Below the pieces are notes generated by a model. It worked only from the letters and a program-made list of their open reading frames with translations, had not been told where the DNA came from and did no database searches. Shown here piece by piece: positions 767 to 64,000 of a DNA stretch of 64,000 nucleotides. The stretch lies in contig OY727100.1 in NCBI GenBank assembly GCA_963402885.1, forward strand, positions 14,353,395 to 14,417,394. Reading direction: 5' to 3'. The position numbers and the translations under genes are program-made. Source of the stretch: Antedon bifida. Its lineage: Eukaryota; Echinodermata; Crinoidea; Comatulida; Antedonidae. How positions within the stretch are numbered: the first letter of the stretch is position 1; the number at the start of each line of letters is the position of its first letter.

Positions 767-1074
767 GTTTGTGTACAAATCCCCTTGGAGTAGAAGACCG
801 TAGTATCACTGATGGCCAGATATCTGCTTCAAGCACATATAGTAATTATCATGGTCATAAAGGTAGATTAAACAGGAATAGCTGCTGGGCAGCAATACAT
901 GGTAACCACCAGTGGATTCAAGTTGATCTTGGAGTTCCTACGACAGTGTCTGGTGTGGCTACACAAGGCTATGGTGGGGATGTTTATTATCCTGAATGGA
1001 TCGAAACCTACCATGTTCAGTACAGTAATGATGGAACCAATTTTGACCAAGTTAATGTTAATGGTGCTGCTATA
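767..1074 (+). CDS. Exon: discoidin (F5/8C) domain, first part, unit 1
   Basis: Acceptor TTTACAG precedes 767 and donor GTAAGT follows 1074; enters in phase 1, leaves in phase 0. The translation has the family landmarks: PLGVEDRSITDGQISASS near the start, GRLN, then HQWIQVDLG and the WIETYHVQYSNDG strand. Discoidin domains bind glycans or phospholipids through loops at one end; the loop residues are those that differ most from the duplicate exon at 42,994. The domain is completed by 1341-1479. Confidence 0.9.
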
Positions 1075-1340
1075 GTAAGTTTTTTACATTTATTATTTTA
1101 ATAAACAAAACAACTCGATAAAGAGTTTTGTGTGTAAACATACATGTTTCGGGAAGCATTTCCCATCAGTGTGAAGCTATATTGCATGGTGCTTTTATTT
1201 ACACTCACTCGCACCGGTATTTAAATGAAGTTATTCATCGTGAAATTATGTTTGGTGAAAGACCTGCAGAACAGCATAGAAATAAATAGTACTGTATATT
1301 ACAATATTTTTAATTTATAAATTTGTAATTTTGTTTTCAG

Positions 1341-1479
1341 ATTTTTACCGCAAATTCTGATACAGACACTGTCATCCGAAATATGTTTCCTACGCCAGTG
1401 GATGCTCAATACATTCGTATTCAGCCACTAACATATCATGACTGGATTACTTTGAGGATGGAAATATATGGTTGTAAAG
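1341..1479 (+). CDS. Exon: discoidin domain, C-terminal part, unit 1
   Basis: Acceptor TTGTTTTCAG before 1341 and donor GTAAAT after 1479; phase 0 in, phase 1 out, 139 nt. It contains the typical end of the fold: AQYIRIQP, then LRMEIYGC with the closing cysteine. All three discoidin C-terminal exons that are not in this duplicated segment or its copy have exactly the same length and phase, which supports the boundaries. Confidence 0.9.
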
Positions 1480-2467
1480 GTAAATACTGTACAATATATT
1501 CTCTAGTATAATCCCACCCCCATAGAACATGAAATTGAGCCGATTACGGGAAAAGCCTGATTGAGGAAAAAAATTATTGGTAAGCATTTCTTGTAAAAAC
1601 TCATCAGAACTGGCTAGAAAAAGGCCTACAGATCAAAAGTCAATACTGGGACTATACCTGGAGATATGCATGTTTGTGAAATCAGACATAAAGTAGGGGT
1701 TGGGATTAGACCAGAAGTGGGATTATAGGTACCCGATGATTTATGTAACCGTTATTATCACACACAACATGTACAAAAGATGGTTTATTGTATGTTGCTC
1801 ACTATATATACAGTAAAATAGGATCAAGCCTTCTGACACTCATCATGAGGCCTGCTTACTTTGTCATAACAAAGAACCAGAATAAAAACCACACAAACAG
1901 TAATTTGTACAATACTGTAAAAAAGTATGTTTCCATTTCGCCCTAAATTTTAGGGCTATATGAGAGCAGTAAAAATTTTAAGCTTAAAACACTGAGCGGC
2001 ATATAGTTGTTAAAGACCGTAAACGATGGTATGACCTCTATTAAAGGATTCTCTTGACCTTTGTGTCAGACAGATGATGTTTATAAATACATGATAGATC
2101 CTGTATTCATTATAATAATGATATGGAATTACAGCGTTTGGGAAGTTTATATATGAGAGTACAGTGGAAATAATGAAAGAAAAGTGGGTAAGAACTGATG
2201 AATATGCAACAAGAAACATCCTGAAAGACGCACTTTCATTGTAACGATAAGTGTACGTTCCGTGGTTAAAAGCAACATTTTTTTCTCTGCGGTTTATAAT
2301 TTGACTTTTGTATTAACGTTGTACGCTAATATTCTATGGGTTTGAACATAGCCCAAGGCTCTGACTGCTAAAAACTAATATATATACCACATATATATTA
2401 GAATAGCTTGTTGACATATAATATATATTAGAAAACAAATTTTATAAGGACTTCATTTGTGTTTCAG
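1480..2467. other. Intron, no recognised content
   Basis: Intron of 988 bp between discoidin and EGF exons. I see no exon, RNA gene or mobile element. Its duplicate at 43,710-44,692 differs at roughly eleven substitutions and one small indel, which serves as a neutral yardstick for the exons. Confidence 0.7.
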
Positions 2468-2587
2468 ATTCAGTTAATCCATGTGACTCAGATCCCTGTC
2501 AGAATTCTGGTGTGTGTAGCCCAAGAGGTGCCGAGTATTTCTGTTTGTGTAGTAGTGGGTTTGAAGGGGATAGATGTGAAACGGAAG
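2468..2587 (+). CDS. Exon: EGF-like domain, unit 1
   Basis: Acceptor GTGTTTCAG and donor GTAAGT; phase 1-1, 120 nt. Six cysteines in EGF spacing (NPCDSDPCQNSGVC, then FCLCSSGFEGDRCE). The coding sequence is identical to that of the duplicate exon at 44,693, but the donor is GT here and GC there. Confidence 0.9.
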
Positions 2588-2651
2588 GTAAGTTTTTTAA
2601 GAAGATATTCCAAGCCCATTATTTTTAATATAGAATTGCTAACACAACTGA

Positions 2652-2785
2652 CTAAAGCTCTGTCTACACTATCAAACTAGCTTGATAAAAAAAGTGTGAC
2701 GTTCCCAAATATGATAGTGCTATTCTCACATATATGGGTACATCACTTTTTTTGTCAAAGTTTAATAGTGTAGACAAGGCTTTAG
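2652..2785. mobile_element. Short MITE (family T), internally deleted
   Basis: Ends with TAAAGCTCTGTCTACACT and an inverted TAGTGTAGACAAGGCTTTA. Members of this family are nearly palindromic, about 160 bp, with an inner CCCAAATATGG and CCATATATGGGCA. The middle is missing compared with 44,878-45,039. Confidence 0.75.
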
Positions 2786-3000
2786 TATATTCAGAACACA
2801 GTCTGTTAAATAAATACCTTATGCTTTTGGAAAAGTGACATATTCAGGATTTTTTATATAAAAATTTTTACTTAAAAATAGGTAAAAATAAAGTGCTGAA
2901 ACGAAGTAATTAATTTAATCAAATACAATGACAGTTTTTAAAATTAAACAATTTTCAAAATTTATATAATTATAGTGTTATTGATTTTATATTTTTACAG

Positions 3001-3042
3001 CAGAGTCAATGAACATGGAAAAGTCAAATTCTTCATATTGTG
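3001..3042 (+). CDS. Exon: 14-codon linker, unit 1
   Basis: Acceptor TATTTTTACAG and donor GTAACA flank 42 nt in phase 1-1 (about AESMNMEKSNSSYCG with neighbouring bases). It has no domain. The acceptor is a tandem ACAGCAG, so splicing three bases further on would be in frame. Conservation in both copies and matching phases support it, but such a short exon is less certain. Confidence 0.6.
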
Positions 3043-3338: not shown

Positions 3339-3605
3339 AATGTTACGAAATGGAAAAAGGTGAGGATTACCGAGGCTCAAGAAGCACTACGATGTATGGT
3401 ACAATGTGTCACAGATGGCCGGGATCAAGTAACCCGCATTTATTCAATCCAGAAAATTCTCCAAATGCAGGTCTGGGAGACCACAACTTTTGTCGTAACC
3501 CTGAATCAGATTATACAGTATGGTGTTATACATCTACAGATTCAGAGGTTTGGGAGTACTGTGATATTGGAACTGCAAGTGAACTGTGTCCTAGCGTTGA
3601 GGATG
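3339..3605 (+). CDS. Exon: kringle domain, unit 1
   Basis: Acceptor GAATTTCAG and donor GTATGT; phase 1-1, 89 codons, the usual size of a kringle. Landmarks are ECYEMEKGEDYRGS, then CHRWPGSSNPHLFNPE, NFCRNPES and VWCYTSTD ending in YCDI and a final cysteine: six cysteines of the triple-disulphide fold. Compared with the duplicate at 45,595 it differs at four bases, all amino-acid-changing. A MITE begins 8 bases after the exon. Confidence 0.93.
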
Positions 3606-3612
3606 GTATGTA

Positions 3613-3779
3613 TAAAGCTCTGTCTAGACTATCAAACTTTATGTGACAACAAAACGTGATGTGCCCATATATGGACATGATGATGTCATATCGCTACCAT
3701 ATTTGGGCATATCACTACCATATTTGGGCACATCACACGTTTTTTGTCAAACTTGTTTGATAGTGTAGTAAGAGCCTAA
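3613..3779. mobile_element. Short MITE (family T)
   Basis: AAAGCTCTGTCTAGACTATC at the left and an inverted GTTTGATAGTGTAGTAAGAG at the right, with CATATATGGACATGATGATG inside. It lies immediately downstream of the kringle donor and is shared by copy B at 45,869-46,033, so it predates the duplication. Confidence 0.8.
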
Positions 3780-4315
3780 TATCAATGAACTGTTCGAATA
3801 TGAGATTTCAATTGTATACATAGAGTATTATACTCTGATGTCATGGTACCGCATCACATGCTTTGTTGCCATACGACTCAAGATTGTGGTTAATACCTTC
3901 ATACATGGTCAATGCGTTCTGAAGCCATATCCAGATGTCTATTGATTTCGATACCTTTGCCTTGCCTAGTTAAATAACAAATTTAACTGAAATAGTAACA
4001 CAAAACATGCACAAAACTCGTGTGTCAGTTCTCTGATATATCGATTACAGAAGTATTATAATTGAAATTATTAACTACAGTTACAGTAGCGAAACCAATA
4101 CAAAGCTAGCTATGAATTGACGACAATCTTAGTTGCATAGCAACAATGTCATGTAATACTGTACTTAACATCAGCTTTGTTTTTACTCTATAAGATACAA
4201 AACTGTCTCATAATTGCAATTGAACATTTATCTTAATTTTCAAATTACAAGAAGGATGATGAAAAAAATGTCTATATATCTATAATGTGTCCAGTATCAG
4301 ACAAATTGTGTATTA

Positions 4316-4379
4316 CAGTGTCACATATGTATCATGTGACGTCTGTATCATATGCCGCATGTGATACATAAGTGACACT
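4316..4379. repeat. Hairpin insertion specific to copy A
   Basis: CACATATGTATCATGTG is followed about 20 bases later by its near reverse complement CATGTGATACATAAGTG. In copy B the corresponding place has only the single short sequence TTACATATGTGACACTG. Confidence 0.65.
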
Positions 4380-4514
4380 GGACTACAGAATTTGCCTATG
4401 ATATTGGACATTAATGCCATACAGTACATTGGGTGCTTTCAGTATCAAATTCATTCATTCTCTAAACTTATAATATTTACCATGCAAAGATCACTATTTT
4501 ATCTATAATACACT

Positions 4515-4663
4515 TTAAGCCTAGTCTAGACTATCAAACTGTTTTGACAAAAAAGTGTGAGTGCCCAAATATGGTAGTGTGGATATGACATCATCGTGTC
4601 CATATATAGGCACATCACATTTTGGTTGTCACATAAAGTTTGATAGTGTAGACAGAGCTTTAA
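4515..4663. mobile_element. Short MITE (family T)
   Basis: Starts TTAAGCCTAGTCTAGACT, ends AGTGTAGACAGAGCTTTAA, nearly palindromic. Shared with copy B (46,669-46,816). Confidence 0.8.
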
Positions 4664-5486
4664 TATGTTAATTTTATGTGTTTTATTCCATAATGATTAT
4701 GCAATACTTTAAGTAAGTGTTTATTATGTTACATGTACTTGTTTAAATGTTTTCCAATTTTCGGTCACCCCCCACATAATATATATGCTGTGTTTTGTGT
4801 CTTCTTATTCTCTGATAAATGTTGTATTATTCTTGTTAAGGGTAATAATTTGAAGTTTTTGTGGTATAATATATTGTTATATATGCATAACATTTTCTCT
4901 TATCCAATGGACAGACACTTATATGGTATGTTATATCAACTACGAAGAAAGTTATTTTTACATTTTTTTTTTATTAATAATGCTAATTTATGTTATTTTA
5001 ACTAATTTTGTTTTTTCCACAGTTAATCATTTTTATTGTTAATTATGTTATCACCATCATTTCATTTTTAATCATTTCTCATTTCAGCTAACAGTACTAA
5101 TATTTGGATGAAATATTTTAAATAAATTAACAAGTTGAGTTTATTACGTTGTCGTTTTTTTTTTATCTGATATAATTGTTTACATCAATTTCATCACAAT
5201 AGAGAGCTTTTGATTTGGCCTAATTAGGTCATGTTGTCAACTTATCATGTGCATATGGGGATATATGTATGCTCCCCACCTCGACACAGTTTTGGTGGTT
5301 TCTAGGTCCAGGTGATTACTGACGACACAAGGATCGGCATAACCCAGCTTATTCCTAGTTTGTCGCAAATCGTAAGCTCTCTATTGACAATAATTTCACT
5401 CTTCCCTGATCTAACCAATCATAGACACACAGCCCAGGGTGGTCTAGGGGCTATACCATATCTCAATATGAAGTCAAGGCATATTG

Positions 5487-5640
5487 ACTGCGAACTATCA
5501 AACTTTATGTGACAAAAATGTGATGCCCATATATGGACATGATGATGCCATATGAATACCATATTTGGGCATAACACTAACATATTTGGGCACATTGCAC
5601 TTTTTTTGTCAAACTAGTTTGATAATGTAGACAGAGCTTA
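5487..5640. mobile_element. Short MITE (family T), left end eroded
   Basis: CGAACTATCAAACTTTATG at the left and AATGTAGACAGAGCTTA at the right. Shared with copy B (47,642-47,770). Confidence 0.7.
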
Positions 5641-5699
5641 AGAGTTGAGTTTGAACCATGTATAATATTAAAACCCCATGCAATATTTGTTTGATATGT

Positions 5700-6064
5700 A
5701 TACAGTCAACTCCCTCAATACCAGACTCTCTGAAAACCGGAAAAATTAAGATGTTGAGAGGGTTATTAAGTTCATCTTTGAAAACACAATTTGTTTAAGA
5801 TTTGACAATTCTCATATAGGAAATATTTCCTCCAGACCACCAACAATTTTGAAATGAATTTTAACAATAATTTTAATAATGAAACTGTATTCAATACAGT
5901 ATTTGTTATTTACAGTCAAATCTCCCAAAACCACACCTTTCTTGAAGTTCAAAAGATTTGAAATGTTTTCATACTATAAAAAACACATTCAGAATACCAG
6001 ACTTTCCATAAAACTGAACATATTAGGCAAGCCAAAGGGTGTCCGGTATTGAGAGAATTGACTG
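5700..6064. mobile_element. MITE with ACAGTCAACTC ends, two adjoining parts
   Basis: TACAGTCAACTCCCTCAATACC begins the stretch and GTCCGGTATTGAGAGAATTG closes it; an internal TACAGTCAAATCTCCCAAAA suggests two overlapping or nested copies. Related elements sit at 23,712-23,907, 39,847-39,993 and in copy B at 47,830-48,207. Confidence 0.55.
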
Positions 6065-8978
6065 ATGTATCACATACAAATATTGTAGATAACTATAGAT
6101 TAGATATTCATACCAGTGCATGTACATCAAATTATCATGTTCTTCTAAGCAATAAACTCCTAATATATGCATGACATTGTATGCAGCTAGCAGAGCATTG
6201 TTGTAATTATAGACTAGCTATTAACCAATCGGATTACTTTCGGAACGTGTTGCATTGGAATATTCTCCTTTTTTTTATCATCATGACTTTATCAAAACTT
6301 TATTGAAAATATTCGTAGCATAATTAATTATGCCTGGAATAAATAGAAAATTATTTTACAAACAAACTTGGAAATAGACTCATCAACCATTGTATGATTT
6401 TTATTTTCTGTTTGTGAACATTATTTTACTCTACCGGTGGATAGAAAAGTGCAGAAAGTGTGCAAATAATAATAATAATAGTTTATTCTTATATAGCAAG
6501 CTCTCAATGCGCTGCACATTATTACCCCGATCATTTTTTGGATCAAATAGAGAAGGTTCAATTGTTAAAAATTGTTATAATAATGAATGATGATGAGGAC
6601 ATTCAACTTTAATAACCTCCGCCAATGAGTGTAGGTTTTCACCCCTAAATCAAATCGTTATTGCCATCGTAATAAACAAAAAAAGCATGTTAAGATGGAG
6701 GACGTACAACAAAGGTAAGGGTAAAGGTAAGTTAAACACACAAACTGTCTGTGTTAATTTGGTTAGAAGCCACAGGTTTTATTGATTATATTTGAATACA
6801 AAAAATGTAAAAATTTAAAAGATATAATTTGTCATAATTCAGTCAAAATGTTAAGAAAATTAAATATACATTCCTGATGGACAGAAAATATAAGAATTTG
6901 GATATAATTAAAAATTGTTTTTGCTATTTTTAATTTATTATTACTTATTTGTATTATTTTTTCATAAACTCATAAACCTTTCAGAATTCTGGTAACAACT
7001 TTTATTGACAATACTGAGAAAAATGATAAGTTCGTTTAACTACTCCAAAATCAATAGTAATAAAATTCAAGTTTTTCTAATATTGTGGTCGTCGTGAATA
7101 TTTATATCATAATGATTTTGTAGTCACGTTATATATCTAATTTATTCATATAGGTAGTTTGACTCTTTTATGCTATTATACACAATGTACATTTATGCTA
7201 CATCACATAACTTGAGTACATTTACTTGCAATTATCATGGTCCATCATAATTATAAGTAATTATAATTCAAATTTGAGCCTCAACTTATAAATAATAATA
7301 ATACAGCTATTTTAGTGAATAAATTTGCACAAGACCAGAATTTTTACAGTGGGCACCTTTTTCACTAAAGGAAGCATTTTTCATAATTAGGCTAGCTAAG
7401 CATATTTATCATACTTCTGTTGCTTGTCTTCAGTTTAAAATGGGCACTTGGGAAAGCGGAGTTTGTTGAAACCTTCAGAGCCCTCTGACTTCGGGTTTGA
7501 CTCGGCCGCTTATCTGAACCATAGAGATATTGTATTGCAATCTCTGAACATAATCCAAAAATGGATCTTTCTGTCTCAAAGCCTAACAATAGTATTAGAG
7601 ACTAATTTATTCCAAGTTTAAGACGAAGGAGCGTGCAACCCAAGCGTTATCACCTCCACCCCACCCCTTTTTTTGGTTACAGTATTTTCATTTTCACCCA
7701 CTAGTATTATTTAAATTTTAAAATATTAATATTCAGATATCTATACCGAAACCAAAATAAAAAATAAATCATTGAAAAAATTTTTATATTAATTATCTAC
7801 ACACATTAGTAAACACAGTAAACAACTTTTAATTAAGTTTGTTCAAAATTTGGTTATAGTTATAATTAATATTCAAACATTTATTACCGAAACACAATTA
7901 TATGCACATGACATAAAACAAAATCAATATTTTCTAATGCCATCATCTTTTGAATTATGTATGTATTTAGAGCATGCACAAAAAAAAATATTCATACAGA
8001 TATTAAAATTTAAGCACGATTTTAAACAATATCAGTTTTAATACGCAGATGTTGCTTGATATAGTTAAGCGTCAGCATTTTCGTATGCATAACCGAGTTG
8101 GTCGTCTTACAGAACGGTTGTGATGGCTATTCAATTTCTGAAAAGTATGTGTTAGTAAAATCACCATGGCGTTATTGCAACCTGCTTTTCGTAATGTAAG
8201 TTTTTCTAATTTATATATTTGAAAAAGTATTTTTAACATTAAATATGTGTTAAAGATGTATTGTCCAAAAAAAAAATTCCTAAACAAATTGTGGTTGAAT
8301 ATGCCATTTTAATGTCACAATAGTTATCCACTTTGACCAAAAATGGATTGAAACAAAATGTATTTATCTGAAAAAAGATAAATTAAAGCAAAAAATAGTC
8401 AAATTGGCTGCCAGCCAATGGGTTTTTGGTTAAATTTAACCATTTATTTTGTTATTTTATAGGTGAAAACATTTTTTTCCATTTTTTTTCTATGGAAGTG
8501 ATTACATTTATTAAAACTACAAAATAACCTATTCAAAGTCTGATTGAATTAATCTTCATTTTTCATGTTTTTGGGGGACAATACATCTTTAAAGGAAAGT
8601 GGGAGACTCCAAGTTTACCAGCAGAATTAAAAGCATAAATTTTGGTTAATTTTCCTGTCTATGTATTTTCATGGATAATTCATTCCAATAAAATGTTTAA
8701 AACTGATAAACTATGAACAACAGGTCCATCCCTCTAAGTTCAGACAGGACTTCTATAAAATTGAATTTATTGCGAGGACCTGATACCCATTGATCCCCTA
8801 CCCACCAAAAATTGTATTTGTAATGCCACAATATTTGAGAAAAATTTTTGTATAACCTAGTAGTCAAAAGGCATATTCGACTGGGTTGTTTTGTGCAGAT
8901 AATCAGCAGATTTAGCTCCTCAAATCCCTCGCTTTTTATGCGAAACATGTATAGCTCACTGTGAGGTTTTTTTGCGAG
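6065..8978. other. AT-rich intron, no recognised content
   Basis: Part of the large intron after the kringle exon. I find no exon with good splice signals, RNA gene or complete mobile element. An open minus-strand frame at 8697-9059 (120 codons) crosses the duplication boundary, is shortened in copy B and has no recognised motif, so I do not call it a gene. Confidence 0.6.
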
Positions 8979-10386
8979 AGTTTGCGAAACTGTGTCATAC
9001 CCAATTTGCGTCAATTTAGTAATTAATCGTTTGTATTTTATTTCAGTTTTACCTTTCATTTTATAGTACTTTAGCTATTTTTACAACAGAATCCAAGACT
9101 GCTTCGGTTCGGTGCACCCGCGTCTCGCGAAAAATAGAACGACAAAGGAGGGGTCGAAAAACCGAAAGTAAAAGGTCAACTAAATAAGCCAATAGGCTAA
9201 CACGTGGTTTGTCCATTTAAATCACAGGGTACGCTAACGGAAAATAATGACGTGATGGAAATGTTTTGAAAAGCTACCCAAGGTTATAAAATAGCAGCAG
9301 GACTAGTCCATTTGTGCATAATACAATTTAATATATAGTTTATAGGGGTGTAAAATACGGTTAAAAAGTTGGCATTTAAACCCAATTTGCGTCACAGTGT
9401 AATTTTCCTATGTTTACTTATGTGTTTTTTAATATATACCTTTGTTTTTTAAATGATAATAAACATTTTTGTTACCAAAATGTGTCTATCATTAATGTGT
9501 TTTTTTCTGTGTGTTTATTTATTAATTTAAAAAATAAATGTGAATGTGCAGGGGTGGGGAGGGGGTTGGCAAAAATACAAAGACAATGTAATCAAACAAA
9601 GTTAGGCATTAATCCATGGTTTAGGCCTAGGCCTACATGCAATGCAGGTAAAATACATACAGAGTATTATTAAAATTCCCCTCCCCCCAATATTCAAACA
9701 ATTCAATTCAAATCGCGGGGGGACACGCGCGCGGTCACGTGAATAATCCGGGGGACACAGCGCGAACTCGGGGACATGGCACAGTGCATTATATTACTTG
9801 TATATTGTGCATAAAAAAAACCTACTTCCTTGTTTGTAAACTACTATACTTCATGATTGGCTGACTGTATTTATCTCTGATTGGTTCGTATAATTTATTA
9901 TCTATTAGGGGTGCCAGTGTAAAAAAATGGCGTTGATGGCAGTATTTAATTTATAAATATAATTTATTTTTGTTTTCATGGAGGAAATTTATTTTGTCCA
10001 TGGTATTACACTAACATGGTATAGGCCTATGCCTATATAATATATATAGGGCCTATATATATAAGTATTACAGTATCATTAGCGATAAAAACTTATTCAG
10101 TACATCTTTATTATAAGCCTCAATTATTGTTGTTAATAATACAAATAATATTAGATAATTATTTTTTGGTCTATTATTAGCCTACCATTTTAATAATATA
10201 ACATGCAGTTATATTTTTTGAATATCATTATTGAATTTGCCTTTTGATATTAATAGTGAATTATAATAAAAGTAGTTGCATAGACAGACTGGTAATAAAA
10301 AAGTATACACTAGAGTTTCGCTATCGCTATCTGTTCAGAGTTCCGTGTTTTTCGTTATCAAAACTTAGGTTAACGTATTATGTTAA
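8979..10386. other. Non-duplicated intron sequence beyond copy A, with a GC-rich patch
   Basis: Sequence unique to the A side. CCCAATTTGCGTCA occurs at 9000-9013 and 9381-9394 and reappears inverted at 20,356-20,369. A short GC-rich, CpG-bearing stretch at about 9,700-9,780 stands out in the AT-rich surroundings. No gene recognised. Confidence 0.5.
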
Positions 10387-12511: not shown

Positions 12512-13624
12512 AAAAAAAGACCCATTTCAGTGTGGGATGTGCGAGTCGCCAAATGACGTTAGTGTCCATGGCGGGTCTGATTACCTAATTTTGAAACTTT
12601 GGTATTTTTTTTAAAGGTTTTGATGTTTTCTGTCGAGCGCTTTGTACTAAAGCGCCATATAAATAAAATAAAAATAATGAATAGCGGCACTTTAAAAGTT
12701 GGTTTCCGATTTTTATTGAGTATATAGGCTAAATATTAGTAATCTACTACCCCATCATGATACTGCTGATTCATACATCCGTACGATATTACTACCAGGA
12801 GGAGGTATGCACTTATGCAGTCCAATATCTAAAGTTGCCGAGCCAACATAAATAATAAAAATATACAGTACATAGGCCTATATATATATATTAACATTAC
12901 CAAAGGTCATTCTAGAACATACATAGCACAAAAGGTTAGAAAAATTCGTAAAAGCACGTCATTATTTAACTAAACACATTTAATTTATTCAGCTATCATT
13001 ATACATGCATTTTACCAAAAATATCAATGTATTGAGACATTTTTTGCAAGACCCTTTTATTACATAGATGACAAAATGTATACAAAAAAATAGAAACGTC
13101 ATCAAATAATATAATGTGGATTTAATTATTTATTGTACATTTGGAGCTATATATCCAATACCAAATTGGCGAGTAAATCATGTTTTACTTTAAATTAAAT
13201 TTATACGCTCTTCCACAAGGTCAATTGTTAGTTATACATACAGACTATATTAAAACAATGATTTTGAACACGTAGGGCATTTCTTTGAATTCTTTCCTAT
13301 CGGCGTTTTGTGGTAATTTACAGCTTTTTTTATGTTTAACAAACGTACATAATCAATTGCGTCTGCATCATGCTAGACTACAACTTCCGGTAGTGACGTA
13401 ATCAGCACATTTTTGGTAATAAAACTTTTTCACTAAGCTAGGGAATCTTCTGATATCAATATTCATTAGACCGTACTTTAGTTAGCCTATCAAAATAAAC
13501 GTATAAACAATTTTGCGGTGATGTTAAAAAATACTTTGAGACTATTTGAGGTGTTTGTACAGTTACCCAGTTTTATTCTTAGTTCAGTCAGTCCCAACTA
13601 AGACTATGGTAAAAATTAAACCAT
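12512..13624. other. Intron, probable transposon 3' flank, nothing else recognised
   Basis: AT-rich sequence after the transposase. It may contain the 3' end of the element, but I could not define a terminal repeat. No exon or RNA gene recognised. Confidence 0.5.
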
Positions 13625-15830: not shown

Positions 15831-15839
15831 ATAGTGTTT

Positions 15840-16250: not shown

Positions 16251-16389
16251 AGTTCTATTCTTTATCACTGTGTTTAACTTTTAACCAAATTGGTTATAGT
16301 AAAACACAATGATAAACTTATCTGTAAATTTTATTTTTCATATTACATAAAATATTTGACATTCTTTATAATATGTTTATAATAGGATA

Positions 16390-54252: not shown

Positions 54253-54498
54253 CATTGGAAAAGCAGGAAGTGTTTGGCAATAGTCTGTACATTTTTGGGA
54301 ATGATACCAAAACTAAAGAAGAAATTACAACCATTTGTGCTGAAAAACATTCGTTTATGGTCTACATTGAATCAGAAATGGAACATGATTTTATTGCAGG
54401 GAACAGGTATCAACAATCATCCACCATCTTGGGACTCTATAACTCATCAGATGGGATTATGAAATGGGATGGAGTTGACATAGATCTTGACTACGAAG
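54253..54498 (+). CDS. Exon: C-type lectin domain a, N-terminal part, unit 2
   Basis: Acceptor TTTTTGTTTAG and donor GTAAGT; phase 1-1, 82 codons. EVFGNSLYIFGNDTKTKEE, ICAEKHSFMVYIESEME, ILGLYNSSDGIMKWDG. Old paralogue of 22,270. Completed by 55,466-55,579. Confidence 0.82.
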
Positions 54499-54589
54499 GT
54501 AAGTACCAAAAAAAAACTAAAGAGACAAAATATTACCTATACCTTGTCTATACCTATGCCTTGTCATCTGCCTATTGGTAGACAGTAAT

Positions 54590-55130
54590 TTTCTCTTCAA
54601 CCTTTAGATCTGCAGCAAACTCTTCCAGATATTCTTTCCATTGTCTTATTTCATTATTATCAGTTAGTAATTTATTTTCTTTATTTAATACTGTGTGTAC
54701 CCTTACGTCTTTTAGTGTTAATTCCTGATAGTTCCTTTATTACTTTATATATGTCACTCCGTCCAGCCTTCTGTAGATTATCTATTACATTTATTACTAA
54801 TCCAGTCTTCTTTTGCCTTATCTGTTTTTCTTCTTAGTTGATTATTTAGTCTTCTGTATTCCTTTCTTCATTCTTCTGTAATTATAATTTTCCATTTCCT
54901 CCTTTGTTCCATTTGTGTTATCATCTCATCTGTGATCCATGGTTTTTTAGTCTTTTCCCTCTTCTATTTTTGACATGTTTGTTTGCACTGTCAATAATCA
55001 CTTTCTTTATCTGTAACCATCTTTTTTCAACATCCGCATCTTCTTTATCAACAATATCTGTATCTATTTGATCTCTAAATAGTTCCTGTACATTGTTGCT
55101 ATTTTGTAAAACCAATAGCTGCACTGATTA
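54590..55130 (-). pseudogene. Non-LTR retrotransposon fragment (RTE-like linker region)
   Basis: The minus strand at 54,921-55,124 reads VEKRWLQIKKVIIDSANKHV followed by a basic run, the pattern found between endonuclease and reverse transcriptase in RTE-like LINEs. Further along the same strand, in broken frames, come IRQWKEYLEEF-like and TGLVINVIDN-like pieces. Only the linker is left; the assignment rests on motif resemblance. Confidence 0.6.
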
Positions 55131-55465
55131 TGTTTAAAAAACATAGTATAAAACTCCAAATAACGAGAGGCAATGATTCAACGTTTCGATCTTTATTTGA
55201 TCATAACCAATATGTTCATCATAAATAAACAATTGTATGTTGTTGACATAAACAGAAATATAGTATAATAATAATAATGATAAAGATAAAAAAAAAAATG
55301 ATGATAATAAGAGCTAAAATATTTTGTTGTTACTGCTGACCCATACCTATATGCCATCGTAGTCAACAGGTCTCTGGAAATTTCCTTCACACTACATAAA
55401 CATGGTTGCAACTTGAAATGAGATTTGATAAGGATAACTCCTCAGTTTCTTTTTTTTTCTTTCAG

Positions 55466-55579
55466 ACTGGAAGAGCAATAATCCAGTACAGCACAAAACC
55501 TGTACAGCTATGGAAAGGACGAACAAACACTGGTATTCGATTGATTGTAGTGAAGAGGGGAATTGGGTCTGTAAAGTCG
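55466..55579 (+). CDS. Exon: C-type lectin domain a, C-terminal part, unit 2
   Basis: Acceptor TTTCTTTCAG and donor GTAAGT; phase 1-1, 38 codons. WKSNNPVQHKTCTAME, then WYSIDCSEEGNWVCKV. No calcium motif. Confidence 0.85.
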
Positions 55580-56805
55580 GTAAGTCATGGTAGAACAAAA
55601 AAAAAGGTCTATGTGATATAGTATAAAAACAGTGTCATATGACTATGTCTTATGTTAGAGTTGTCACATATTTTGCCTAGATTACAGTACAAGAATCAAG
55701 ATACAGAAAAGACTATCTCTCATAAACCAAAACACTGGCTTGTGAACTGTAGCAATAATACTTTACACCACTTTATGTCGCACAATTTGTGTTTCCAGAA
55801 GAACTGAACATAAATAAAAATTACTGGAAAAGGTTGCCAAAACTGACACTCAAACCAATACTAACTGCTAATATGCAGACACTTAAGATTATTTAACTAG
55901 TATATTCTCATGGCAAAAACAATTCAATACAAAAAATTGGTTTATAGTTCAGCACTTTTTTGATTTTAATCCTTGGACCAAAATCCTGGCTCCACCATTG
56001 GGGATATTAGGACAGTAATAGTTAAACCAATATATGATATATAGATATGCTGTAAACTGACACAGGGTATGTTCAGATCCATGGAGTTATGCTTTTGTAT
56101 CGCAAGCAATGTCATATTATAATTAGCGTCGTAACAGCAAAGTGTTCAGATTTGCCTACCTAACGCTTTCATTTCAAACTGAATTGTCACCGATTTGGGT
56201 GAACAGCTGGTATGCAGGAGTAAATTTGATTGGTTACAGGTCAAAATCGTTGATGCATGACTTTTGTATCCTAAGTGGAGTTCACTAATCCTGTACCTTG
56301 AGCTGTAGTAACGAATGAAAGATCAGTATCGTACGAGGTGGCTTCCACTAATCTTTTCCTGGTTCAGACCCATGGAGTTGTACGTCACGTACAATACGAA
56401 AGCATAACTCTGTAGGTCTGAACAGGCCCTGCATCTACAAACATATGCTACTAATAATAATAATATGAAAAACAGTGAGAAAATCTTAATCTTCAAAAAT
56501 AGTTATATTAATTCATCTTTGAATTTGGAATTCCCATCCTTAAAGATAGCACAGAATTTTATATAAATATATATGAAAATCAATCTAACAATACAGAATT
56601 TCATTCCAGGTTAAGCAAGGGGTTTTTTAAAGTCTGAGAATAAGGCTAAAAGAAGTCTTATGTATTCTTGGAGAGAAGGAACATTGTCAAAACATAGCAC
56701 TACAATTAGATAGAGATATTGAAATCTACAAGAGAGAAAAAGTAATAGTTGAAAGGTAACCCTAATAAATGACAGCATTTTTATTTTATTTTTAACTAAT
56801 TTTAG
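55580..56805. other. Intron, no recognised content
   Basis: 1.2 kb between lectin domains a and b. A GTTCAGATCCATGGAGTTATG-like segment (about 56,071) recurs as GTTCAGACCCATGGAGTTG (about 56,364), suggesting a small repeat; otherwise nothing seen. Confidence 0.5.
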
Positions 56806-57069
56806 AACGTTGTCCTAAAACATGGACACTTCAGGGAGACGTATGCAGGAAGAAATTTAATAACAGTCGAAACCGAAACTGGCACGAGTCTAACCAATTT
56901 TGTCAAAGTGAGTATGGAGCTACCTTACCGATCTTCAAGAATGCAGAGGATATGGCTATTCTTAAAGAATATCATAACAAGATACCATTAGGTTACTCTG
57001 ATAAAGGTCACAAAGATACATTTACAGAGATCACTTGTGATGGAGAAAAGCTGCCCCAGTATTTAGATG
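56806..57069 (+). CDS. Exon: C-type lectin domain b, N-terminal part, unit 2
   Basis: Acceptor CTAATTTTAG and donor GTGAGT; phase 1-1, 88 codons. RCPKTWTLQGDVCRKKF, WHESNQFCQSEYGATLPIF, LGYSDKGHKDTFTEITCDG. Clear paralogue of 24,334. Confidence 0.9.
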
Positions 57070-57223
57070 GTGAGTTTCTATTTTCAAACTTGGTTTCATC
57101 AAGATATCTAACATTTTATTGGTATAAAATCTAAATTAAAAGCTAATCAAATATTTTTTTGTAAATTTTCTATGCATCATATTTATCATTGTATTGATTG
57201 TTAACAATATTTGCTTTAATCAG

Positions 57224-57337
57224 GATGGGCCACAAATCAACAAACTCATGAGAAACAAGATTGTGTGTTTTTGAGTCAAAGTGTTCTTTATAAACATCAC
57301 TGTGACCACAACAGTTCTGTAACTCTGTGTCAAATAA
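57224..57337 (+). CDS. Exon: C-type lectin domain b, C-terminal part, unit 2
   Basis: Acceptor CTTTAATCAG and donor GTAAGT; phase 1-1, 38 codons. WATNQQTHEKQDCVFLSQ, then HHCDHNSSVTLCQI. The EPN and ND calcium residues seen in the unit 1 partner (25,282) are gone. Confidence 0.85.
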
Positions 57338-57996
57338 GTAAGTTGGTATATTAATAGTAGATATCTTGAAAGCACTGACGAACATCCAAGAGTCAATTTA
57401 TAACACACCTGAGTGTATTCTTTCATTACATGCCATTCGGTTGTAGTTCTACTAAAAATTCTAATTTTAATAATTAATAGTTTTAAACATGTTCAGCTTT
57501 TTGTAAGTATTTAGATAATTTTTTGCCACCAGACGTCATTGACTGAGTTACGTTAAAAAATCAACCTGTAGTGCACGTTATCTATAACATCTCTATACTC
57601 CATTATGTTAGAACAGTAGGTGTGTTAAAAAATAAATAATGTATCTACTGTCTATTTATCTATTTAATCTTTTTAATCTTGGCTCCATCAATTCAACTCA
57701 TGAAATATTCTCACCATCCAGCTCATAAATATTCATTATTTGTATACTGTCCTGGTACAGTTTTAAAGACAATCACAGTTGTTCTGGACGGCAGCTGAAA
57801 TATACCTTTATTAGGACAATGCAAGAACATACATGCATGCAAGTAATTTGACCAATCACAAGTGATGTATCATCCAAACATTTATTGTAATAAAATTGGA
57901 TTTTAGTTCATTCACCTACAATTGCCATCTGGCTTTGTAAGCAACTTTTTATATGTAGTAAACTTTTTTTAAAAATCAATTCTTTCATAATTATAG
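57338..57996. other. Intron, no recognised content
   Basis: 660 bp, AT-rich; nothing recognised. Confidence 0.5.
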
Positions 57997-58239
57997 ATGC
58001 CTGCCCAAATAATTTCATGTACTTTCAACATTCCTGCTACTACCATCATGATAATGAGTTAAATTATGACAATGCAATAGAAGTTTGCCGACAGCTTGAT
58101 TCTAGCTTACTTGTCATTAATACTCAACTTGATACACTGATGCCATATCTGAAGAACAACTATTTCATTGGCTATCATAGACGAAATGTAAAAGAATTCT
58201 ATGAGATGGATATTAGACACAGTCCATGGAGTGCTCTGA
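57997..58239 (+). CDS. Exon: C-type lectin domain c, N-terminal part, unit 2
   Basis: Acceptor CATAATTATAG and donor GTAAGG; phase 1-1, 81 codons. ACPNNFMYFQHSCYYHH, VCRQLDSSLLVINTQLD, YFIGYHRRNVKEFYEMDI. Paralogue of 26,471. Confidence 0.88.
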
Positions 58240-58575
58240 GTAAGGAAGTTTGTTACCATGCCAAAGAATATAGTACTTGCTTTGTTTTTTTGTTTGTTTA
58301 CACGACACAATCCATCCACAATTTATAAGATATCGTTCTGAATTTCGTAATGATAATAGAACATGCCTATTTATTTTCAGGGAAATTTATATATTGATGA
58401 CTTCACAAAAGCTTATTATATTAAGTTGAGTTGAGTTACCTGTATCTTCAATATTATTTAAAATATTAAATAGTATTCCCCCTATTTTGCCAAGTATTTT
58501 GCGTAGTTCCTGAGCGCCATGGCTACCACACTGTGAAGGATTGCAGAATAGATATCATTATTATTATTACTACAG

Positions 58576-59342: not shown

Positions 59343-59642
59343 ACCCACCATTAAATGTTCATTGCTCAGTATTATATTCTGAAAACTCAGTAAGGTGTTA
59401 TAAGCATGAAGACAGTAATGTTTACATTAGTTCATTACTATCTTTGACAAGCTACACATCGGACACAGCTGAGATTTCCTCTTCGGAGACAAATTTCCTG
59501 AATATGAATGTTGAAACAAACAGTCAAAAGACAATGGTCACGATCGAAATGACATCTGAGGAGCCTGTTGGTGTCTTTCAATTTCAAATTGAATTGAATC
59601 GTGTTAATACAACTGTACAATGGATGGTTTTAAAGGCAACTG
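59343..59642 (+). CDS. Exon: unrecognised domain preceding Ig, unit 2
   Basis: Poly-T acceptor ending TTTAG and donor GTAAGT; phase 1-1, 100 codons against 116 in unit 1. Shared core SSLLSLTSYTSDTAEISSS; the rest is strongly diverged (VGVFQFQIELNRVNTTVQW). No family recognised. Confidence 0.78.
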
Positions 59643-59689
59643 GTAAGTACAAACTAATTATTTTTTGTGGTCAACTTCTATACAAATTA

Positions 59690-59875
59690 CTGTAGAATCG
59701 ATCCTTTGTGACACCTCTATAAAAGGGACAATATCCCATAAAATGAACAAGGGGCAATATATATTTTAACACTACAAACATCCCCTCTTCACGAGACACC
59801 CCTATTAAGAGGACACTTTGTTCAGTTCTAAGGGTGTCCCATTAATAGAGGTTCTTCTGTACAGTATTTGTATAC
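59690..59875. repeat. Decayed element with CCCTATTAAGAGGACAC motif
   Basis: ACTGTAGAATCGATCC at the left and TAATAGAGGTTCTTCTGTAC at the right, with CACCCCTATTAAGAGGACAC inside. The same motif occurs at about 34,411-34,490 and 61,868-62,002, so it is a dispersed small inverted-repeat element. Confidence 0.55.
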
Positions 59876-60033
59876 AATTTAAGAGACTCAAAAAAGTGCA
59901 CCCTTAAAAAAGGATTCCCTGATTTCCAATCGCATTGATAAAGCCCCACATTTTTCAATCACCACTAGCATGTGTTAGATTTGTTCTACCAGACTTTTAC
60001 ATAAATAAAAACAATATCCATGTTATTTTCAAG

Positions 60034-60291
60034 CAATCGTTGAGGTAGAGCCATCCCAGAGATCTGTGACTGTTGGTCTTGGAGAGACAGTAACACTGAC
60101 TGTGATTGCATCCACTGCAAACAATCTTCGTTGGAGACATAACAACAAACTTATATACAGCGACTCATCACATGATGTGAAAAACCTGACCATTGCCAAT
60201 GCTCGTCGTGAAGATGAGGGCGTGTACGAGTGTTATTACCAGGGAGAACGGCATTTAGGAATGCATCATTTTATGTATTTATATGTCACAG
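60034..60291 (+). CDS. Exon: immunoglobulin domain, unit 2
   Basis: Acceptor TTATTTTCAAG and donor GTACGG; phase 1-1, 86 codons. RSVTVGLGETVTLTVIA, NNLRWRHNNKLIY, LTIANARREDEGVYECYY. As in unit 1, the strand B cysteine is not present. Confidence 0.9.
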
Positions 60292-60521
60292 GTACGGTAC
60301 TGTATTTATTTATTTTTTAGATGCTTTATTCTCTTATTCTCAGGACCTGAATGTTTCTATTATTTTAAAACAATCAAGAAGAAGTGAAATATAATTTTAT
60401 ATTGAAATATGCTGATATCGATTCAGGTGTTAGGGACTGGGTTTAATTCCCTGAATATTTTTGCCTCATTGTGTTGTCCAATTTTTTTTTTATGTACTGT
60501 GAATTATTCCTGTCTTTACAG

Positions 60522-60656
60522 AATGTCCGACTTCTTATTGTGGTATCCCGTCCTGTGCTCTTAATTGTCCAGTTTGTCACAATGGTGGACGTTGTCATGC
60601 CAGATCTTGCACCTGTGTCTGTCCACCTGAATTTAGTGGTACCCACTGTGAAAATG
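60522..60656 (+). CDS. Exon: EGF-like domain following Ig, unit 2
   Basis: Acceptor TCCTGTCTTTACAG, identical to unit 1 for 19 bases; donor GTAAGA; phase 1-1, 45 codons. CGIPSCALNCPVCHNGGRC, then CVCPPEFSGTHCEN. No laminin-EGF exons follow in unit 2. Confidence 0.9.
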
Positions 60657-61112: not shown

Positions 61113-61313
61113 TTTCTTGTAGCAGATTTGATGATTGGGAGACTGGTTTTGAAGGCTCGTGCTACCGATTTGTCACGTCGTCCACGCCAATTACATGGAA
61201 AGATGCTAGATTGGAATGTATGAAAGTTAAAAATGGAGATTTAGCCCTAATTAAAACACAGGCTGAAATTGAGTACATCCAGAGAAGAACTAATAATAAT
61301 AAGTATTGGATAG
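61113..61313 (+). CDS. Exon: C-type lectin domain g, N-terminal part, unit 2
   Basis: Acceptor CTTTTTTTTCAG and donor GTATGC; phase 1-1, 67 codons. FEGSCYRFVTSSTPITW, KDARLECMKVKNGDLALI, AEIEYIQRRTNNNKYWI. Split at WIG, a different intron position from domains a-c. Confidence 0.88.
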
Positions 61314-61634
61314 GTATGCTACAGTACTTTTTTTTATAAGCCAATGAGGGTTCTGCTTTCCTAGCACTCTATAAATCATTTCTAATATATTAAGTGAAAA
61401 TCACAAAAAAAAGATTTCAGAGCAAAGATTGCAGGCTCTTTGACTATTCTGTGTTAGTATTTCATGAAAATAGTAATAGTGCAACTGAAGAGTCCTTTCT
61501 GGTTTTAAAATTTCCCTCATCCACTATTGAGACACCTAAAAATGGTACAATTTTGTACAATATAATTTTAAGTTTTTCCTTAAGGCTTGGTAATAATTAC
61601 ATTAAATTAAATACCTCCTGTATTTTGCTTGAAG

Positions 61635-61799
61635 GAAGTTTTGATAATGGTATTTGGCGTTGGTTAGACTGTAGCCAAACCTCATTTTCGCTCGACTACT
61701 CACAAAAAAAATGCGGGTATTTTCTGAATAATCGGAATCAATACTTCGGACAGGATACTTGTTCTTCTGAATATACGCAATATGTTTGTGAAATATCAG
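61635..61799 (+). CDS. Exon: C-type lectin domain g, C-terminal part, unit 2
   Basis: Acceptor TTTTGCTTGAAG (weak) and donor GTTTGT; phase 1-1, 55 codons. Joined to 61,313 it reads YWIGGSFDNGIWRWLDC, an ideal CTLD core, then KCGYFLNN and QDTCSSEYTQYVCEI. The start is inferred from that join; upstream AGs are possible but would add unlike sequence. No EPN/WND. Confidence 0.8.
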
Positions 61800-61867
61800 G
61801 TTTGTTACATTTTACTTTTCAAATTTGTTGAAACAATTAAATTTCTTATACAATATATATATAAATT

Positions 61868-62002
61868 TTAGGACTTTTGGAACCCAACAAAGTGTCCCCT
61901 TAATAGGGGTTGTTTGTAGTGTTAACACATATATTGCCCCTCATTCGTTTTACAGGATGTTGTCCCCTTAATAGGGGTGTCCCAAAAGAGGGGTTCTACT
62001 GT
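61868..62002. repeat. Small repeat with CCCCTTAATAGGGG twice
   Basis: GTGTCCCCTTAATAGGGG and TTGTCCCCTTAATAGGGG occur about 60 bp apart, ending in GGGGTTCTACTGTA. Same family as 59,690-59,875. Confidence 0.6.
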
Positions 62003-62503
62003 ATAAGAATTTCGAGACAAGAGAGCCGAGTTAAATTGAACAATAAATCTTTCAATAAAATGATATTCTCTCCATTTGACAAATACAAAATATTTGTGAT
62101 TTGTTTATATGCTTACTGTACTGAAGTAAATTATTTGATTATTTCGGCAACAAAACCAGTCACTTTCATCTAGGATTGGATGTCAAAGACACGCCACACA
62201 AAACTAGGCTGTTGACTAATTGCATTCATTCAACTGTCAAATTGTTCTACTCCACCTCCAAATTTGGTGCGCTGCCTTTTTAAATTTGTTTAAGCATTAA
62301 CGTAGCTGCTCGTTTTAGCAGAAATATCTAAATAAAAGTAGGTGTTATGTTATAAAACAAATAATGAATGCAATGGAACAAATAATTTAATTCAGTGAAA
62401 GATGAAATGTTTTTTTTACACTTCATGAAATTATTTGTTACATTGCACTCATAAATATTTGCTATTTTTATATTAAATATCATTATGTATTCATACCTGA
62501 CAG

Positions 62504-62797
62504 AATATGATCCTGATCAAGCCAACCCATCTATGTTCAATGGATCAGCAATAAGCTCAAGCACAGTTGAGTTGACCTGGCAAGTATCTGATGTAAATTG
62601 TGATGTTCTCGGCTACAAGATCAAATACGTTGGTTCTTCAAAAGTGACTGTTGATGTACATGGATCTTTAGTTAATAGCGTACAGATTAACAGACTTATA
62701 GAAAACACAGAATACACATTCTCAATTGCAGCATACAATCAAAGACAAGTGTTGACCTTTAACTTGAATACAACTGTTCGAACACATGAATTTGTAG
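62504..62797 (+). CDS. Exon: fibronectin type III domain, unit 2
   Basis: Acceptor ACCTGACAG and donor GTATGT; phase 1-1, 98 codons. SSTVELTWQVSD, VLGYKIKYVGS, LIENTEYTFSIAAYNQRQV: canonical FN3 tryptophan, tyrosine and leucine. Confidence 0.9.
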
Positions 62798-63519
62798 GTA
62801 TGTATCCACATTAAATAGATTCTAATCATCCTATTTTAAAGTATTTATAAATGCTTAAATATACCTAATTGCTTCTTGTAATATACAAACAATTAATGTT
62901 TATGTGTGCAATGGGGCACACTGCATGTAAAACGTAAACAGATTGCGCTAGGCTCGCTGCACGATTCAAAAACAGAACAAACACACACCACTTACCTTGA
63001 ATTCTGCTACACGACGGATTTGCTAGGCCTTGGCTAAGAGGTGAATTTGCCGCCGAGCAGTGGAGCGTGGTAAGCCTAGCTTCTTTCTAGACTAGGCCAA
63101 GGTGTATTCACCCAAAATGGCAAGTGAGAATATTTCAAAGACCCATGTTATGAAACAAATAATGCACAAGTCTCAATTCGTACGTTAGTGGAGATGTGGC
63201 GCACTCTCTGGTATTCACAATGTCATGCAACATGCACTCGGTTGCGCCTTGTACATGTCGCACCATTGTAGATACCCTCAAGTGCGGCGCATCTCCACTA
63301 ACACCTGTGCATTATTTGTATATTAATGTTGATGTTTATTCTCTATCTTGTTCATTGTTTTTGGTTCACTTTTACAAAAAACTTTTATTATTATTATTTT
63401 AAAGATTTATTTAAATAATTTCTTTAAAAAAAAATCATTTCAGTAAAATTTATTGCTTTATTTTGTGTCATTTTTAATTTGTTTGTGGTCAATATGCTAA
63501 AGTACTTTTTACTTTATAG
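62798..63519. other. Intron with an inverted-repeat element
   Basis: ACAAATAATGCACAAG (about 63,156) and TGTGCATTATTTGTA (about 63,306) enclose GAGATGTGGCGCACTC and its inverted partner TGCGGCGCATCTCC, about 165 bp. Nothing else recognised. Confidence 0.55.
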
Positions 63520-63705
63520 AGAGGGCGGGATGCCCAAGTGGATGGAAACAGGAAAACAATGCATGCTATAAATTTGTTTTCAACCAGAAACGTTGGCATG
63601 ATGCAAGATCTGACTGTCAGGCCACACCAGGTGGTGATCTGGCTATTGTTGATACAGAAGCAGAACTGAATTATATAAAACAAAATGTCAGGTTTGGATG
63701 GATTG
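63520..63705 (+). CDS. Exon: C-type lectin domain h, N-terminal part, unit 2
   Basis: Acceptor TACTTTATAG and donor GTAAGT; phase 1-1, 62 codons. CPSGWKQENNACYKFVF, RWHDARSDCQATPGGDLAIV, then FGWIG at the junction, the same split position as domain g. Confidence 0.9.
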
Positions 63706-63998
63706 GTAAGTAAAATTCATCTTTCATTTTTAGATATATAGATATATACAGTACACGTTCACAATACAGAAACTTGTTTCTTCTTGATTTCACTATAATA
63801 ATAATCAGTGCTCTTAGAAAAAACTGCATGCCTTGCACACTTATAATTCATGTTGTGCAATCCCCAACAGAATTTGTTAGAAATTTTTGTATTTGTACAA
63901 TGTGATGAATTGTTTCTAAACGATGAGTAACAGCCTGTATGTACAATGCCAATGATAATAATGAGCCAATATTATGAACTGCCAACATTGTTTTACAG

Positions 63999-64000
63999 GT
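63999..64000 (+). CDS. Probable start of lectin domain h C-terminal exon (cut by window)
   Basis: ATTGTTTTACAG ends at 63,998 and the window closes with GT. With the preceding G this would give the Gly expected after WIG. Only the acceptor can be seen. Confidence 0.45.

What the first reader, a model, noticed from the sequence alone, without database searches (positions are those of the whole stretch)
767..64000. Tandemly repeated 42-kb module of a mosaic lectin/kringle/Ig protein
The order discoidin, EGF, linker, kringle, three C-type lectins, linker, unknown domain, Ig, EGF occurs twice (767-30,574 and 42,994-60,656). All exons are phase-compatible and no gene end separates the units. I know of no described protein family with kringle, discoidin, several C-type lectins and a Tie-like Ig/EGF/FN3 core in one chain. 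It may be an undescribed recognition receptor, either one giant repeated protein or a tandem gene family.
Basis: partly seen in the sequence, partly recalled or inferred. Interest (0 to 1): 0.88.

Follow-up and report, generated by a model that had tools for sequence, protein, structure and literature searches.

The report
Crinoid tandem lectin-kringle mosaic genes
In a feather star, a row of neighbouring genes encodes large proteins, apparently secreted, that string together sugar-binding, clotting-type and immune-type domains in an order that seems undescribed; they look like multi-pronged recognition or glue molecules, not one giant receptor.

Summary
The domains and the 42-kb repetition are real, but the units are out of register and the one-giant-protein option is not supported. 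The genome is a feather star (crinoid) at or near Antedon mediterranea. With 200 kb of flanks I find four head-to-tail modules: A (about -21.6 to 3.6 kb), B (about 20.4-45.9 kb), C (about 53.1-89.6 kb) and D (about 94-112 kb). A and B share a recently duplicated 30.6-kb segment. Annotated crinoid proteins place gene starts before the first lectin (A/B/C type) or first discoidin domain (D type). 42,187-42,994 is an ordinary phase-1 intron inside gene B; the gene gaps are 3.6-22.3 kb and 45.9-53.1 kb. Gene B encodes 6 C-type lectin, 2 Ig-like (one tentative), 7 EGF, 2 FN3, 3 F5/8C and 1 kringle domains; no kinase or membrane anchor was found. The Ig-EGF core is homologous to the Tie2 ectodomain. 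In my searches only Antedon and Anneissia proteins combine this core with lectins and F5/8C. Exon-sized high-identity patches suggest gene conversion. Most likely a crinoid family of secreted multivalent recognition or adhesive proteins; no function is shown.

The parts
767..1479 (+). gene A, 3' part: F5/8C (discoidin) domain, exons 767-1074 and 1341-1479
   Evidence: P0004 residues 1697-1847
2468..2587 (+). gene A: EGF exon
3339..3605 (+). gene A: kringle exon, last recognisable coding exon of A
   Evidence: kringle match (C13:14356744-14356962 = window 3350-3568)
3606..22269 (+). gap between genes A and B: 18.7 kb in which I recognise no domain exon of the family; holds a DDE transposon and satellite arrays; the 5' end of gene B probably lies in its last 2 kb
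   Evidence: longest intron counted in gene B is 1335 b, median 430
20594..20651 (+). candidate hydrophobic (signal-peptide) exon of gene B, phase 0 to 1; tentative
   Evidence: chose the same stretch in copy A as phase 0-1, in copy B in another phase; no relative covers it
22270..22998 (+). gene B: C-type lectin 1 (exons 22270-22518, 22891-22998)
   Evidence: (P0003 N-terminus)
24334..25407 (+). gene B: C-type lectin 2 (exons 24334-24603, 25282-25407), with EPN and LND
26471..27207 (+). gene B: C-type lectin 3 (exons 26471-26710, 27073-27207)
27738..27782 (+). gene B: 45-b linker exon, phase 1-1, counterparts in A, C and D
   Evidence: no Pfam or relevant PDB match; model pLDDT 51; the D and P0002 copies have two cysteines, the second in G-E-[YF]-x-C
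29787..30044 (+). gene B: Ig domain (Ig_3)
   Evidence: Tie2 match
30440..33073 (+). gene B: four EGF exons (30440-30574, 31775-31915, 32249-32380, 32921-33073), Tie-like
33540..33857 (+). gene B: FN3 domain 1
   Evidence: weak, 0.027
34103..34803 (+). gene B: C-type lectin 4 (two exons)
34986..35901 (+). gene B: F5/8C domain 1 (two exons)
   Evidence: factor VIII/neuropilin matches for P0004
36015..36825 (+). gene B: C-type lectin 5 (two exons)
37121..37159 (+). gene B: 39-b linker exon
   Evidence: present in P0004 by eye
37557..37931 (+). gene B: C-type lectin 6 (one exon)
38296..38586 (+). gene B: FN3 domain 2 (FN3 assigned by eye and by likeness to D)
   Evidence: (98% to P0004)
39017..40502 (+). 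gene B: F5/8C domain 2 (two exons)
41550..42187 (+). gene B: EGF exons 5 and 6
42994..43709 (+). gene B: F5/8C domain 3 (two exons); joined to the preceding EGF by a normal phase-1 intron
44693..44812 (+). gene B: EGF exon 7 (GC donor)
45255..45296 (+). gene B: small linker exon, borders approximate; left out of the 2055-aa translation
   Evidence: P0004 1892-1905, 100%
45595..45861 (+). gene B: kringle exon, last domain of gene B
   Evidence: (C13:14399000-14399218)
53096..53144 (+). gene C: probable signal-peptide exon (VWLALNVIATLFVNAV), phase 0 to 1; no start codon found for it; the P0004 model reads it out of frame as its tail
54253..58272 (+). gene C: C-type lectins 1, 2 and first exon of lectin 3
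   Evidence: exon borders of lectin 3 uncertain
59343..60656 (+). gene C: unknown domain (59343-59642), Ig (60034-60291), EGF (60522-60656)
61113..64000 (+). gene C: extra lectin, FN3 and lectin exons not present in A/B; the gene goes on beyond the window to about 89.6 kb

Best explanation
A tandem array of four crinoid genes (A-D), each coding for a large protein that appears to be secreted, built from mostly phase-1 exon cassettes of C-type lectin, F5/8C, EGF, FN3 and sometimes kringle domains around a Tie2-ectodomain-like Ig-EGF-FN3 core. Proposed mechanism (inferred): lectin and F5/8C domains bind glycans or membranes on microbes or surfaces, the core spaces them, and the molecule works as a soluble multivalent recognition, opsonising or agglutinating protein. 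Parts of the core are homogenised by exon-sized gene conversion while outer domains diverge. Shown: domains, gene order, one annotated chain, recent duplication of A/B in this assembly, Tie2-like core, patchy identity. Inferred: secretion, ligands, role, conversion as the cause.
For: Gene borders: P0001 (A. mediterranea, = D) starts with a signal-like stretch then F5/8C, and our sequence has the matching exon at 94,046; P0003 (Anneissia) starts with a signal-like stretch then the first lectin; P0004 maps to A and B over most exons and ends after the kringle. The tail of P0004 equals an out-of-frame read of gene C's first two exons; read in frame they give VWLALNVIATLFVNAV-ALEKQEVFG, and in B's frame they meet a stop. 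No anchor seen in P0001-P0004 (one weak segment in P0002). Tie2 match E = 3e-19. Lectin 2 of B has EPN plus LND, one lectin of D EPN plus FND, one of C QPN plus FND. Patchy identity: EGF4 of C and D 95.6% over 183 b against about 66% in neighbouring aligned blocks; EGF1 90.7% (B-C) and 91.7% (B-D); lectin 4a of B and C 87%. Anneissia P0002 and P0003 EGF4 98% aa, while lectin 3a follows architecture (D-P0002 62%, B-P0003 45%, P0002-P0003 38%); their cores group together, 90/95.
Against: No expression, protein or binding data. The P0004 model is imperfect at both ends, the signal peptides of A and B are not identified, and 3' ends are uncertain, so an anchor could have been missed. Of the lectins checked for the recalled sugar-binding motif only 3 of 15 have it. 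In one search the P0002/P0003 fork is below the tool's star threshold and several rows are long branches. EGF3 is not homogenised (P0002-P0003 51%, D-P0002 57%, B-P0003 58%). Copies A and B differ by 1.1% in exons and 1.4% elsewhere (Fisher p = 0.15) and dN/dS is 0.73 on 18 synonymous and 50 other changes: no constraint is visible between them, and such a difference would also fit a haplotype-duplication artefact.
Confidence: 0.55

Rival explanations
1. Same gene family, but the products are extracellular-matrix or temporary-adhesive proteins (tube foot, cirrus or epidermal secretion) rather than immune recognition molecules.
For: EGF, F5/8C and lectin mosaics recur in temporary-adhesive proteins; sea-urchin Nectin has six F5/8C repeats (PMC10057474, passages). 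A matrix-metalloproteinase-like array (by eye) lies just upstream.
Against: The vWD and SUEL-lectin domains named in those passages beside EGF and F5/8C are absent from the Pfam scans of P0001-P0004 and of the gene B translation. Nothing on tissue or secretion is known.
Confidence: 0.33
2. Transmembrane recognition receptors whose anchor and cytoplasmic exons are missed by the gene models.
For: Relatives with the same core are anchored: P0008/P0009 carry tyrosine-phosphatase domains and P0010 has a transmembrane stretch.
Against: No convincing transmembrane stretch in four annotated relatives; no tyrosine-kinase match listed at C13:14.28-14.55 Mb (131 of 778 candidates scored, list truncated).
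Confidence: 0.15
3. One giant protein of repeated modules spanning A to D.
For: The kringle exon of B (phase 1) can be joined in phase to the lectin exon 54,253 of C if 53,096-53,144 is skipped; most exons are phase 1-1.
Against: Signal-like stretches at the start of D-type and first-lectin-type relatives, separate annotated proteins in two crinoids, large gaps, out-of-frame junction through 53,096.
Confidence: 0.05
4. The A/B duplication is an assembly artefact (two haplotypes placed in tandem).
For: Substitution difference 1.1-1.4%, which could be allelic; only one A/B-type protein appeared for A. mediterranea.
Against: No N in the 264 kb; an 11-kb unshared stretch lies between the copies; A and B group apart from P0004, though only with 85/80.
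Confidence: 0.2

Closest known systems
Uncharacterised proteins of Antedon mediterranea (P0001, P0004) and Anneissia japonica (P0002 LOC117117232, P0003 LOC117117144)
   Same: Same family: same core, same lectin and F5/8C cassettes; P0004 has the kringle; the members of each pair lie on contigs of the same length
   Different: Unnamed, gene models incomplete; no functional description found
Tie2 (angiopoietin-1 receptor) ectodomain
   Same: Ig followed by EGF repeats aligned over residues 35-220 of the core, E = 3e-19
   Different: No kinase, no anchor found; lectins, F5/8C and kringle added
Echinoderm receptor tyrosine phosphatases and a Tie-1-like protein with the same core (P0008, P0009, P0010)
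   Same: 35-36% identity over 72-74% of the core query
   Different: Transmembrane stretch; P0008 and P0009 with phosphatase domains; no lectin, F5/8C or kringle
Nectin and other echinoderm adhesive proteins
   Same: F5/8C domains in a protein with a signal peptide (PMC10057474 passages)
   Different: Nectin is six F5/8C repeats; no Ig, lectin or kringle
SpTransformer (Sp185/333) genes
   Same: Works-like analogy only: clustered genes with segmental duplication; gene conversion discussed (PMC5103432 abstract)
   Different: No sequence relation tested; the search listing of PMC5491942 calls them small genes and mentions the second of two exons, here 32 exons are counted

Membership tests
Tie receptor tyrosine kinases | Ig-EGF ectodomain homologous to Tie2 | tested here: met
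   E = 3e-19 over part of Ig and the following EGF repeats
Tie receptor tyrosine kinases | transmembrane segment | tested here: not met
   hydropathy of P0001-P0004 (one weak segment, 1.65, in P0002); gene 3' ends uncertain
Tie receptor tyrosine kinases | tyrosine-kinase domain | tested here: not met
   no kinase in Pfam scans, none listed at C13:14.28-14.55 Mb (131 of 778 candidates scored, list truncated)
One giant repeated protein | no signal peptide or gene end between modules | tested here: not met
   from annotated relatives and reading frames, without transcripts
Tandem gene family | several paralogous genes head to tail | tested here: met
   modules A-D, separate relatives P0001 and P0004 on contigs of the same length; complete start and end exons not shown for any of the four
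Mannose-receptor family | FN2 and ricin-type domains, about eight lectin domains, membrane anchor (recalled) | tested here: not met
   no FN2 or ricin match; no anchor
Canonical Ca-dependent sugar-binding C-type lectins | EPN or QPD motif plus WND-type motif (recalled) | tested here: inconclusive
   5 of 6 lectins of B scanned, 1 with EPN and LND (lectin 6 read by eye, none); 7 of C, 1 with QPN and FND; 3 of D, 1 with EPN and FND; not every lectin of C was scanned
Nectin | six tandem F5/8C domains | tested here: not met
   three separate F5/8C in gene B
Immune effector or adhesive protein | expression in coelomocytes or adhesive glands | not testable with these tools
   no expression data on hand

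The most novel reading that the evidence does not exclude
Crinoids turned a Tie-like receptor ectodomain into a soluble, kinase-free scaffold for sugar- and membrane-binding domains, and keep a tandem set of such molecules whose core is homogenised by exon-scale gene conversion while their lectin ends diversify: an undescribed echinoderm recognition repertoire.
Probability: 0.3. Interest if true: 0.7.

Novelty: new variant of a known kind. Interest (0 to 1): 0.45.

Why it matters
Crinoids are the sister group of all other living echinoderms (recalled) and their recognition molecules are little studied. A family that joins a Tie-like core to lectins, F5/8C and kringle in one apparently secreted chain would show how a receptor ectodomain can be reused as a soluble binder, and gives a compact locus in which exon shuffling, recent duplication and exon-sized conversion can be studied together. 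It also warns that automatic gene models cut or join such genes wrongly.

Tried and rejected
One giant protein: rejected on relatives and frames. 42,187-42,994 as gene border: rejected. Tie receptor kinase: no kinase or convincing anchor. The unknown domain as Ig: profile comparison with the Ig2 exon gave nothing (probability 0.2%), the PDB profile search gave two hits to a nucleolar protein at E 0.27 and 0.36, model pLDDT 51, so no fold search was made; left open. A signal-peptide scan that asked for a phase-1 donor gave four doubtful lines. Selection between A and B: too few differences. Search for an annotated orthologue of C: only P0003, P0004, P0001 returned. Comparison of the last FN3 with P0003 is void: P0003 is partial and the match fell on its other FN3. 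My gene predictor makes mistakes in repeats and at gene ends (it cut A near -9.9 kb and used transposon ORFs), and the first module translations contained stops from wrong exon ends; only exons backed by relatives or paralogues are used, save the tentative ones marked so. The survey of the own genome with the core, PF00059 and PF00754 got no answer.
Full report
Setting. The window is G000:C13:14,353,395-14,417,394 of a 315.6-Mb genome in 27 contigs. I fetched 70 kb upstream and 130 kb downstream and use window coordinates throughout, negative upstream. The best protein match to module D is 97% identical over the queried part and annotated from Antedon mediterranea; the kringle-bearing match, P0004, is also A. 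mediterranea, and its matches to A and B that I listed (75% or more) are 79-100% identical. The organism is therefore a feather star of or near that species; contig lengths differ (24.0 against 28.6 Mb), so it may be another species or assembly.

Observation. Self-comparison shows a recent duplication of -21,580..8,978 onto 20,379..51,128, aligned blocks 95.8-98.5%. In between, 9.0-20.4 kb holds a DDE-transposon ORF (11.3-12.5 kb) and inverted arrays of a 98-base satellite. Beyond 51.1 kb the sequence is an older paralogue. ORF comparison and a home-made splice/codon model give four modules. A/B order: lectin x3, linker, unknown domain, Ig, EGF x4, FN3, lectin, F5/8C, lectin x2, FN3, F5/8C, EGF x2, F5/8C, EGF, kringle. 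C has additional lectin and FN3 domains and two kringles (one search lists kringles at window 87,564 and 87,992). D starts with F5/8C and EGF repeats and ends with FN3 near 112 kb. The 31 gene B exons joined give 2055 aa without a stop (in one search the first three were read in a wrong starting phase and the fourth had wrong borders, put right). Pfam finds six lectin, three F5/8C and one kringle stretch.

Gene borders. P0001 (1901 aa) matches D and begins with a signal-like stretch followed by F5/8C. P0002 (Anneissia) has a similar, shorter layout. P0003 (Anneissia, partial) begins with a signal-like stretch followed by the first lectin of the A/B/C type. P0004 (2025 aa) runs from lectin 2 to the kringle and maps to both A and B; its own first 40 or so residues read the lectin 1 region in another frame. 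Its last residues, GLVGIECHCNIICKCSCIGK..., are what one gets by joining the kringle exon to 53,096-53,144 and 54,253 in the wrong frame; in our sequence that path stops inside the 54,253 exon. In the other frame these exons read VWLALNVIATLFVNAVALEKQEVFGNSLYIFG, a signal-like stretch running into lectin 1 of gene C, though I found no start codon for it. Gaps of 18.7 kb (3,605-22,270) and 7.2 kb (45,861-53,096) compare with a longest intron of 1.3 kb in B; gene C has one gap of about 3.5 kb between accepted exons (75.5-79.0 kb). The first exons of A and B and the 3' ends of the genes remain unknown.

What the protein is. P0001-P0003 have an N-terminal hydrophobic stretch; the only other segment over the threshold in P0001-P0004 is a weak one (1.65) at 370 of P0002, inside the unknown domain. 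F5/8C domains of P0004 match coagulation factors V/VIII and neuropilins, its kringle matches plasminogen. The Ig-EGF core matches the Tie2 ectodomain, E = 3e-19. No kinase match is listed in the fetched interval (131 of 778 candidates scored and the list is truncated). Relatives with the same core but other partners are echinoderm receptor phosphatases, a Tie-1-like protein and others. Of 19 hits to the core only P0001-P0004 carry lectin plus F5/8C (precomputed domains). Of 40 hits to the F5/8C-kringle part, P0004 itself included, only P0004 lists kringle together with F5/8C and lectin. So the full combination is seen in one crinoid annotation only, and the lectin-F5/8C-core combination in two, within these searches and their length limits.

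Evolution. Between A and B, 32 exons have no stop or frameshift; only one has gaps (9 columns). Substitutions are 70 in 6204 exon bases and 325 in 23,800 other bases, p = 0.15; dN 0.0104, dS 0.0143. This shows a close pair but no detectable constraint between them, and does not exclude an assembly artefact. Across paralogues identity is patchy: EGF4 of C and D 95.6% over 183 b while neighbouring aligned blocks are near 66%; EGF1 90.7% (B-C) and 91.7% (B-D); lectin 4a of B and C 87%. In Anneissia EGF4 is 98% identical between P0002 and P0003 although their layouts differ, and their cores group together with 90/95, below the tool's star threshold; lectin 3a follows layout. EGF3 is not homogenised. 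Exon-sized gene conversion is the simplest account; exon duplication would do as well.

Function. Not shown. One lectin of B and one of D keep EPN plus a xND motif, one of C QPN plus FND (motif meaning recalled), so some sugar binding is plausible. I favour a soluble multivalent recognition protein over a matrix or adhesive protein, narrowly. Literature: PMC10057474 (passages) on adhesive mosaics, PMC5103432 (abstract and section list) on Sp185/333 clusters, PMC5460417 (passages) on skeletal C-type lectins, PMC10381214 (passages; the terms C-type lectin, kringle and discoidin do not occur in its text); other papers were seen in search listings only. I saw no description of this family there (searches; an open-access library only).

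Noticed in passing
window 10,981-12,508: ORFs of a DDE (Tigger/pogo-like, by eye) transposon ending in a cysteine-rich PHD-like stretch, inside the A/B gap.
   Followed up: no
window 13,594-15,830 and 18,207-19,824: Two arrays of a 98-base satellite in opposite orientation, about 75-92% alike between the arrays.
   Followed up: no
window 3,615, 34,544, 40,717, 41,231, 44,880, 45,871, 51,140 and others: Short dispersed repeat (AAGCTCTGTCTACACTATCAAACT..., also inverted). A translated piece like it forms the tail of the Anneissia gene model P0002, so crinoid annotations can run into it.
   Followed up: partly
window 17,350-17,656: Tandem ATGAAAATTGCGTCG-type simple repeat.
   Followed up: no
upstream -48.5 to -23.8 kb (L011-L013): Array of matrix-metalloproteinase-like genes (HEFGHSLGLFH motif, hemopexin-like repeats, by eye), with its own 98.8-99.8% duplication between -37.7 and -24.2 kb.
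   Followed up: no
upstream about -60.4 and -46.9 kb (L009-L011): Reverse-transcriptase-like ORFs, 37-38% alike (by eye).
   Followed up: no
downstream 162-173 kb (L025-L026): Tandem GPCR-like ORFs (by eye).
   Followed up: no
G000:C11:18,217,146-18,221,180 and C11:1,523,310-1,525,181: Kringle exons followed by tyrosine-kinase exons, as in ROR-type receptors.
   Followed up: no
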